This document shows positions 7,905 to 35,504 of a stretch of DNA of 37,993 nucleotides, piece by piece. The DNA is from Nitrospira sp. (GTDB lineage Bacteria > Nitrospirota > Nitrospiria > Nitrospirales > Nitrospiraceae), in contig PLBR01000160.1 of the NCBI GenBank assembly GCA_003135435.1, positions 21,327-59,319 on the forward strand. Direction: 5' to 3'. The translations under genes were made by a program, and so were the position numbers. A model generated the notes under the pieces. It had not been told where the DNA came from and searched no databases. It was given only the letters and a program-made list of their open reading frames with translations. Within the stretch, counting starts at the first letter, position 1. Each line of letters starts with the position of its first letter.

Positions 7905-7994
7905 AGCTCTGCAATCAGGAAAGAGGAAGCGTGCGGCCTCTCGCTTCAGCGCCTCCCGCAGCACCCTGTCCACGACGCTCTGAAGCGGAAGGAT

Positions 7995-8095
7995 GGGGAA
8001 AGAGCGGCCAGGTGCCCTTCTTGCTCGCAGAACGCGAACGGTGAAACTGTGCTCGTTCGATGCGCGCAGTAAAGGGCAGCCTCGGCCACTCCCTC
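7995..8095 (+). ncRNA. Structured element, copy A (candidate ncRNA/3'UTR motif)
   Basis: Core TTGCTCGCAGAACGCGAACGGTGAAACTGTGCTCGTTCGATGCGCGCAGTA shared with two copies at 32695-32996; enclosed by GGTGCCCTT (8011-8019) / AAGGGCAGCC (8072-8081). Confidence 0.6.
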
Positions 8096-8180
8096 TAGGA
8101 AAAAGTATAAGGAGTCGGAAGACCCTTGTTAGACGCGCGTACTTAAGGGATCAGCCCAGCCTCCCTAGTTAAAGAGTAGG

Positions 8181-32650: not shown

Positions 32651-32680
32651 AGAAAGGCCGCCTTGTAGGCGGCCTTTCTT
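32651..32680. terminator. Bidirectional intrinsic terminator
   Basis: AGAAAGGCCGCC ttgta GGCGGCCTTTCTT. Confidence 0.9.
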
Positions 32681-32694
32681 CTTCACTAGATTTT

Positions 32695-32805
32695 AGCCTA
32701 GCAGGAGTGGGTGCAGGTGCTCCCTACTGTGCGCATCGACCGAGCACATTCTGATCGTGCGCGGTTTGCGAGCAAGGGAAGCATCTTCCCCGCTCCATCC
32801 TCCTA
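32695..32805 (-). ncRNA. Structured element, copy C (candidate ncRNA)
   Basis: Minus-strand core TTGCTCGCAAACCGCGCACGATCAGAATGTGCTCGGTCGATGCGCACAGTA within stem GATGC(T)TCCC/GGGAGCACC, followed by terminator 32651-32680. Confidence 0.6.
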
Positions 32806-32845
32806 AGTTGAAAAGGCGCCCGGCACTCTTCCCTTGAGCGCAAAC

Positions 32846-32874
32846 AAAAAGGCCACCGTTTCCGGTGGCCTTTT
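32846..32874. terminator. Bidirectional intrinsic terminator
   Basis: AAAAAGGCCACC gtttcc GGTGGCCTTTT. Confidence 0.92.
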
Positions 32875-32889
32875 CATTACTCCCCCCTC

Positions 32890-32996
32890 CATTGCTGGCA
32901 GGAGTGGTGCGGGGTGGTCCACTTGCGCGCATCGGACGAGCACAGTTTTATCGTGCGCGTTCTGCGAGCACAGGGACCACCCCGCGCTGCTCCGTT
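32890..32996 (-). ncRNA. Structured element, copy B (candidate ncRNA)
   Basis: Minus strand GGGGTGGTCC-[CTGTGCTCGCAGAACGCGCACGATAAAACTGTGCTCGTCCGATGCGCGCAAGT]-GGACCACCCC, perfect 10-bp stem extended outward by GGAGyrGyGC pairing; followed by terminator 32846-32874. Confidence 0.65.
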
Positions 32997-32998
32997 CC

Positions 32999-35504
<2,506 letters not shown>

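What the first reader, a model, noticed from the sequence alone, without database searches (positions are those of the whole stretch)
32651..32996. Tandem structured-RNA candidates downstream of ahcY, each paired with its own intrinsic terminator
On the minus strand the region reads element B (32996-32890), terminator (32874-32846), element C (32805-32695), terminator (32680-32651). B and C share a ~50-nt core (TGCTCGCA.AACCGCGCACGAT.A.AA.TGTGCTCG..CGATGCGC.CAgT), while the stem enclosing it has different sequence in each (B: GGGGTGGTCC/GGACCACCCC; C: GATGC(T)TCCC/GGGAGCACC) with pairing preserved. A conserved loop in a covarying stem, duplicated as element+terminator units, looks like an RNA family (sRNA or 3'UTR-derived regulator) that I do not recognise. 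The core is the same in sense and location in all copies: just 3' of a gene on the same strand.
Basis: partly seen in the sequence, partly recalled or inferred. Interest (0 to 1): 0.87.

Follow-up and report, generated by a model that had tools for sequence, protein, structure and literature searches.

The report
Nitrospira hairpin repeats after stop codons
The two hairpins behind ahcY are copies of a previously undescribed family of about 110-nt repeated DNA hairpins, present around a hundred times in this Nitrospira genome and across its bacterial family, which sit in one fixed orientation right behind the stop codons of genes, including core genes such as those for ATP synthase and ribosomal proteins.

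Summary
In detail: two hairpins with a shared 47-nt tip and different but paired stems lie downstream of ahcY, and a third copy lies at 8002-8091. The reading as an sRNA or element+terminator unit is not supported. A covariance model finds about 100 copies in this genome and members in 19 of 50 genera sampled in the class, nearly all in one family (Nitrospiraceae). The terminators belong to the locus: ahcY's is conserved where element B is absent. In 79 independent Nitrospira loci, 37 of 58 copies whose nearest 5' gene is on the same strand start within 20 nt of its stop codon; on the mirror side it is 0 of 32 (p=1.5e-10). Many sit inside core operons (rplK|rplA, atpD|atpC, folD|metF). Stems covary strongly. 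A quarter of copies lie inside other palindromes, so the family is or was mobile, but it lacks the REP tag, RAYT dependence, attC boxes and IntI. Stem mismatches are mainly A.C rather than G.T, hinting that the template strand is the one kept foldable. Best reading: a new variant of REP-like hairpin repeat retained as a post-stop element; its mobilising enzyme and function are unproven.

The parts
32901..32993 (-). Element B hairpin, type I; its outer stem begins 5 nt after the ahcY stop codon (TAA 33001-32999)
   Evidence: R1 84 bits, 32892-33002
32924..32970 (-). conserved 47-nt tip of B
32704..32796 (-). Element C hairpin, type I
   Evidence: R1 99 bits, 32695-32805
32728..32774 (-). conserved 47-nt tip of C
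8002..8091 (+). Element A hairpin, type I, with the commonest stem of the family (GAGCGGCCAGGTGCCCTTC type)
   Evidence: (R1 107 bits, 7992-8101)
8022..8068 (+). conserved 47-nt tip of A
32847..32874 (-). intrinsic terminator of ahcY; a neighbour, not part of the element (conserved in relatives without B)
32651..32679 (-). intrinsic terminator downstream of C; not part of the element (kept in G006, missing in G003 and G009, which still have C)
32999..34423 (-). ahcY, adenosylhomocysteinase; its stop codon abuts element B
   Evidence: TIGR00936, 648 bits

Best explanation
A, B and C are copies of a family-wide dispersed imperfect palindrome of Nitrospiraceae: a roughly 47-nt conserved tip on a covarying stem of about 20-25 bp, often with a purine-rich tail. 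It is, or was, a non-autonomous mobile element: copies are nested at the apex of other palindromes, and species differ in presence at the same site. Many copies persist where, in one orientation, the hairpin starts right after a gene's stop codon. The most likely reason is that the hairpin then works as a cis element of the upstream gene's mRNA, as REP sequences near stop codons do: a barrier that terminating ribosomes and 3' exonucleases meet, setting the expression of the upstream cistron or insulating it from the next. Shown: dispersed family, covariation, orientation-specific stop-codon abutment, presence in core operons, presence/absence differences between species, nesting. Inferred: mobility as the source of copies, and the mRNA-level function. 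Unknown: the mobilising enzyme.
For: About 100 copies in this genome; 12-93 in each of 24 same-genus genomes, with 93 being the scoring limit; 19 of 50 genera in the class, almost all in family f1; all 80 listed exact-tip loci from GTDB species are titled Nitrospira, Nitrospiraceae, Nitrospirae or Nitrospirota MAGs. Covariation with shuffle and slide controls. Stop codon within 20 nt in 37/58 against 0/32 on the mirror side, in line with 35/54 within 3 nt in the own genome. Placement after the stop codon in rplK|rplA, atpD|atpC, guaA, folD|metF, nuoCD|nuoE, sir|cysH and livH|livM (metF, nuo, sir, cysH and liv named by eye). At orthologous sites the tip is type I or II, or another palindrome, or nothing. 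61 of 247 copies nested in other palindromes. E. coli REPs within 15 nt of a stop codon are reported to stall ribosomes and REP hairpins to stabilise mRNA (PMC12306157).
Against: No expression data were available. Stem mismatches are A.C rather than G.T on the mRNA strand (cluster-weighted 143:32, derived events 64:34), the opposite of what selection on the mRNA hairpin alone would give. Many other copies sit far from any stop codon, in arrays. No transposase or integrase is consistently associated. Arm homogenisation during replication could produce covariation without function.
Confidence: 0.55

Rival explanations
1. The element is maintained at the DNA level: the template (bottom) strand folds into a hairpin that an unidentified single-strand recombinase recognises and moves, as with attC sites or IS200/IS605 ends. 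Stop-codon placement then reflects where insertions are targeted or tolerated.
For: In stems, A.C mismatches (G.T on the other strand) far exceed G.T: 71:10 in 52 stem clusters, 64:34 in derived events, p=0.003. A different palindrome family in these genomes is neutral, 29:24. The template-strand fold is more stable in 42 of 52 clusters. Nesting at hairpin apices. Fixed irregular positions in tip and stem.
Against: Part of the A.C excess is ancestral (positions 10-12 and 17-20); outside these it is 36:20, p=0.044. No attC boxes (0/247); IntI above cut-off in 1 of 12 genomes; Y1 transposase not found in 4 copy-rich genomes. No direct evidence of ssDNA processing.
Confidence: 0.25
2. Selfish or dead repeats only: insertions survive where they do least harm, and the space after a stop codon is such a place; pairing is kept by replication template switching, not by selection.
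For: Several palindrome families share these spacers; the compact genomes G016 and G021 have fewer copies.
Against: Copies with hundreds of free bases downstream still start within a few nt of the stop codon, in one orientation only (37/58 against 0/32). The tip stays conserved in copies with fully diverged stems.
Confidence: 0.15
3. One reading: an sRNA or 3'UTR-derived trans-acting regulator family released as element+terminator units.
For: Structured, covarying, 3' of genes; terminators follow B and C.
Against: The terminators belong to the locus and A has none; about 100 dispersed copies, many inside operons; no Rfam match.
Confidence: 0.05

Closest known systems
REP sequences / REPINs with RAYT (TnpA_REP)
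   Same: Short imperfect palindromes with conserved mismatches, hundreds per genome, extragenic, often just after stop codons, in operons, clustered
   Different: About 110 nt instead of 20-50 nt; conserved tip with variable stem; no GTAG or CGTC tag at the base; abundant in genomes without any detected Y1 transposase; G.T wobbles lie on the strand opposite to the upstream mRNA
Integron attC sites
   Same: Imperfect palindrome with variable sequence and conserved structure, bottom strand apparently the folded one, abuts the stop codon, same orientation as the gene (attC features from general knowledge)
   Different: No R' and R'' boxes at the stem base (0/247); conserved part is the tip; dispersed in core operons rather than in a cassette array; integron integrase in only 1 of 12 genomes
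Bacterial MITEs and palindromic elements (ERIC, RPE, Correia, CGTC REPs)
   Same: Non-autonomous dispersed palindromes, nested insertions, some without a dedicated transposase
   Different: No constant terminal inverted repeat (stems differ between copies); orientation-specific abutment of stop codons
Intrinsic terminators and 3'UTR stabilising hairpins
   Same: Hairpin immediately downstream of a stop codon on the mRNA strand
   Different: No T-run; often followed at once by the next gene of the operon; sequence-conserved tip

Membership tests
REP/RAYT | GTAG (or CGTC) tag at the foot of the palindrome | tested here: not met
   GTAG in a 12-nt window at the 5' base in 20 of 246 copies, where TAG stop codons may contribute; no constant tag in cluster consensuses
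REP/RAYT | a RAYT (Y1_Tnp, PF01797) in the genome, usually flanked by the repeat | tested here: not met
   7 hits in the own genome, several partial or with stops, none adjacent to a copy; none in G001, G004, G009 and G018, which are rich in copies
REP/RAYT | high-copy extragenic imperfect palindrome | tested here: met
Integron attC | RYYYAAC / GTTRRRY boxes at the stem base | tested here: not met
   0 of 247 copies with both
Integron attC | integron integrase IntI in the genome | tested here: not met
   TIGR02249 above cut-off in G020 only, of 12 genomes
Integron attC | bottom strand is the folded, recombining strand | tested here: inconclusive
   A.C:G.T bias is in line with bottom-strand folding; recombination not testable here
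MITE | constant terminal inverted repeats and target-site duplication | tested here: inconclusive
   Stems differ between clusters; short GAAGG-like identity on both sides of nested copies may be a duplication or a shared cleavage motif
Known RNA family (Rfam 15) | score above a gathering threshold | tested here: not met
sRNA with its own terminator | terminator is part of the duplicated unit | tested here: not met
sRNA | discrete transcript | not testable with these tools
   no transcriptome available

The most novel reading that the evidence does not exclude
A family of mobile elements that moves as a template-strand single-stranded DNA hairpin through an enzyme that is neither a RAYT nor an integron integrase, inserting at hairpin apices and behind stop codons in one orientation, and domesticated genome-wide as intercistronic hairpins in core operons of Nitrospiraceae.
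Probability: 0.2. Interest if true: 0.85.

Novelty: new variant of a known kind. Interest (0 to 1): 0.62.

Why it matters
Nitrospira are major nitrifiers (nitrite oxidisers and comammox), and the hairpins sit in the operons of their central metabolism, ribosome and ATP synthase, so any effect on expression would be broad. The family offers a test of why REP-like palindromes lie after stop codons: the same spacer holds type I, type II, an unrelated palindrome, or nothing in related species. It also shows that abundant REP-like repeats can exist where no RAYT is found, which leaves open what spreads them.

Tried and rejected
Rfam at gathering and at E<=10: only low-scoring matches far below gathering scores, many of them over the terminators. 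RAYT as mobiliser: rejected. IntI/attC: rejected. Recurrent neighbouring gene as a mobiliser: the recurrent neighbour groups showed no evident transposase or integrase, judged by eye on partial sequences. Element+terminator unit: rejected. Generic fold-energy survey of post-stop regions in 400 kb of G012: the threshold does not discriminate, since coding controls pass equally; only the inspected examples are used. Literature: no description of this family found in open-access papers.

Full report
What is there. On the minus strand downstream of ahcY (32999-34423, TIGR00936 648 bits) lie hairpin B, a terminator, hairpin C and a second terminator, at the stated places. B, C and a third copy A at 8002-8091 share a 47-nt tip, roughly TGCTCGCRGAACGCGCACGATnnnanTGTGCTCGTTCGAYGCGCGCA, on stems of different sequence. 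Copy A has no terminator.

It is a dispersed family. The 18-nt core occurs 85 times in the own genome with up to 2 mismatches, 40 forward and 45 reverse, against 1 and 1 for the reversed control. A covariance model (R1) from 25 copies finds 110 matches in the own genome, some of them the same palindrome read on both strands, about 100 places in all. R1 hits all 24 same-genus genomes: 12 in a 1.8-Mb genome, mostly 70-93 elsewhere, where 93 is the scoring limit. In a 198-genome sample of the class, 114 genomes in 19 of 50 genera have it. All but three of these are in the same family as the window, and those three have one hit each in that search.

Structure. Over 25 copies, 20 of 28 pairs show double compensatory changes; paired cells are 91%, against 80% in shuffles and 33-46% when slid. 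The lower stem varies on both sides at every pair, while the tip is nearly fixed: TGC, T.C mismatch, 4 bp, GA bulge, 5 bp, C.T mismatch, GCAC, loop. A sister type II tip (TGCTCGCGCAACGCGCGGYCTCRGAAGRCCCTCGTTGGACGCGCGCA) shares both flanks of the tip. No Rfam family matches.

The terminators do not belong to it. At the ahcY 3' end of relatives, B is orthologous in G009 and G012 with altered but paired stems. The ahcY terminator is present in several genomes where B is absent and another palindrome occupies the gap. C is kept in G003, G006 and G009, but its terminator only in G006.

Where copies sit. In 79 independent Nitrospira loci, the nearest gene ends within 20 nt on the 5' side in 37 of 58 cases, against 0 of 32 for the mirror arrangement on the 3' side, Fisher p=1.5e-10. 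All three stop codons are used (TAG 16, TGA 13, TAA 8), so no single stop triplet is the target. Confirmed neighbours include rplK|rplA, atpD|atpC, guaA and folD; nuoCD|nuoE, sir|cysH, livH|livM and metF were named by eye from their sequences. The stop codons at the inspected core genes are native: relatives without the element stop at the same codon.

Gain, loss and replacement. At 12 such sites in 9 relatives, the spacer holds a type I or type II tip in 54 of 99 cases; the rest hold an unrelated palindrome, a tip-deleted remnant or nothing (typing by approximate pattern). Of 247 copies with paired arms, 40 lie inside a type II tip, 2 inside a type I tip and 19 inside the palindrome family CAGGATGCTGAAAAA. 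The left boundary in type II tips is repeatedly the AGAAGG near the apex. This is the main argument for mobility; the closest case to a clean insertion is L223 (G018), a type I copy within an otherwise intact type II element. No clean filled/empty pair between close strains was available.

Which strand folds. In 52 stem clusters, mismatches oriented along the upstream gene are A.C 71, G.T 10, other 26. On the complementary strand these A.C are G.T wobbles. The fold of that strand is more stable in 42 of 52 clusters. The CAGGATGCTGAAAAA palindromes give G.T 29, A.C 24, and terminators 11:5. Counting only derived states per cluster column gives 64:34 (p=0.003), or 36:20 (p=0.044) outside the positions where irregularities are shared by descent. 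I treat this as suggestive evidence that the template strand's hairpin is the one preserved.

Known systems. REP sequences are the nearest functional analogue: palindromes near stop codons reported to stall ribosomes within 15 nt and to stabilise mRNA (PMC12306157). The family is not a REP by the tag or the RAYT test, nor an attC site by boxes or integrase. I found no description of it in open-access papers; most subscription papers were not searchable.

Verdict. The function in mRNA and the mode of spread are inferences.

Noticed in passing
L281-L300 (G012 C8), and ahcY 3' ends L083, L084, L087: Another dispersed palindrome (CAGGATGCTGAAAAAG...CCTTTTTGAGCATCCTG) also often starts exactly at the stop codon; R1 elements are inserted into it.
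   Followed up: partly
window 10193, 11008, 30897, 35804, 36779: A separate dispersed repeat (GACGAACCGTCATGAATAATGCGGGCTAG and a related 94-nt unit) with direct and inverted copies in this window.
   Followed up: no
atpD|atpC spacer, L164 and L203: The element's stem extends through the stop codon into the last codons of atpD (AAGGTATAAGCAGG / CCTGCTCATACCTT), so the 3' arm mirrors coding sequence.
   Followed up: partly
G020:C10:192882-193826 (L301); G000 C126:34419-34597 and C59:9480-9563: A full integron integrase in one relative and short matches to its C-terminal part in the window's genome, not next to R1 copies.
   Followed up: no
G016 and G021 (1.7-1.8 Mb genomes): Small genomes of the same genus carry fewer copies (36 and 12); loss with genome reduction is possible.
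   Followed up: no
several post-stop spacers, e.g. L227, L257, L179, L198: Other post-stop palindromes made of GTGAAACGTGAAACG-like or GGCGTGAGGGGTGAGG-like runs occupy the same spacers in relatives.
   Followed up: no
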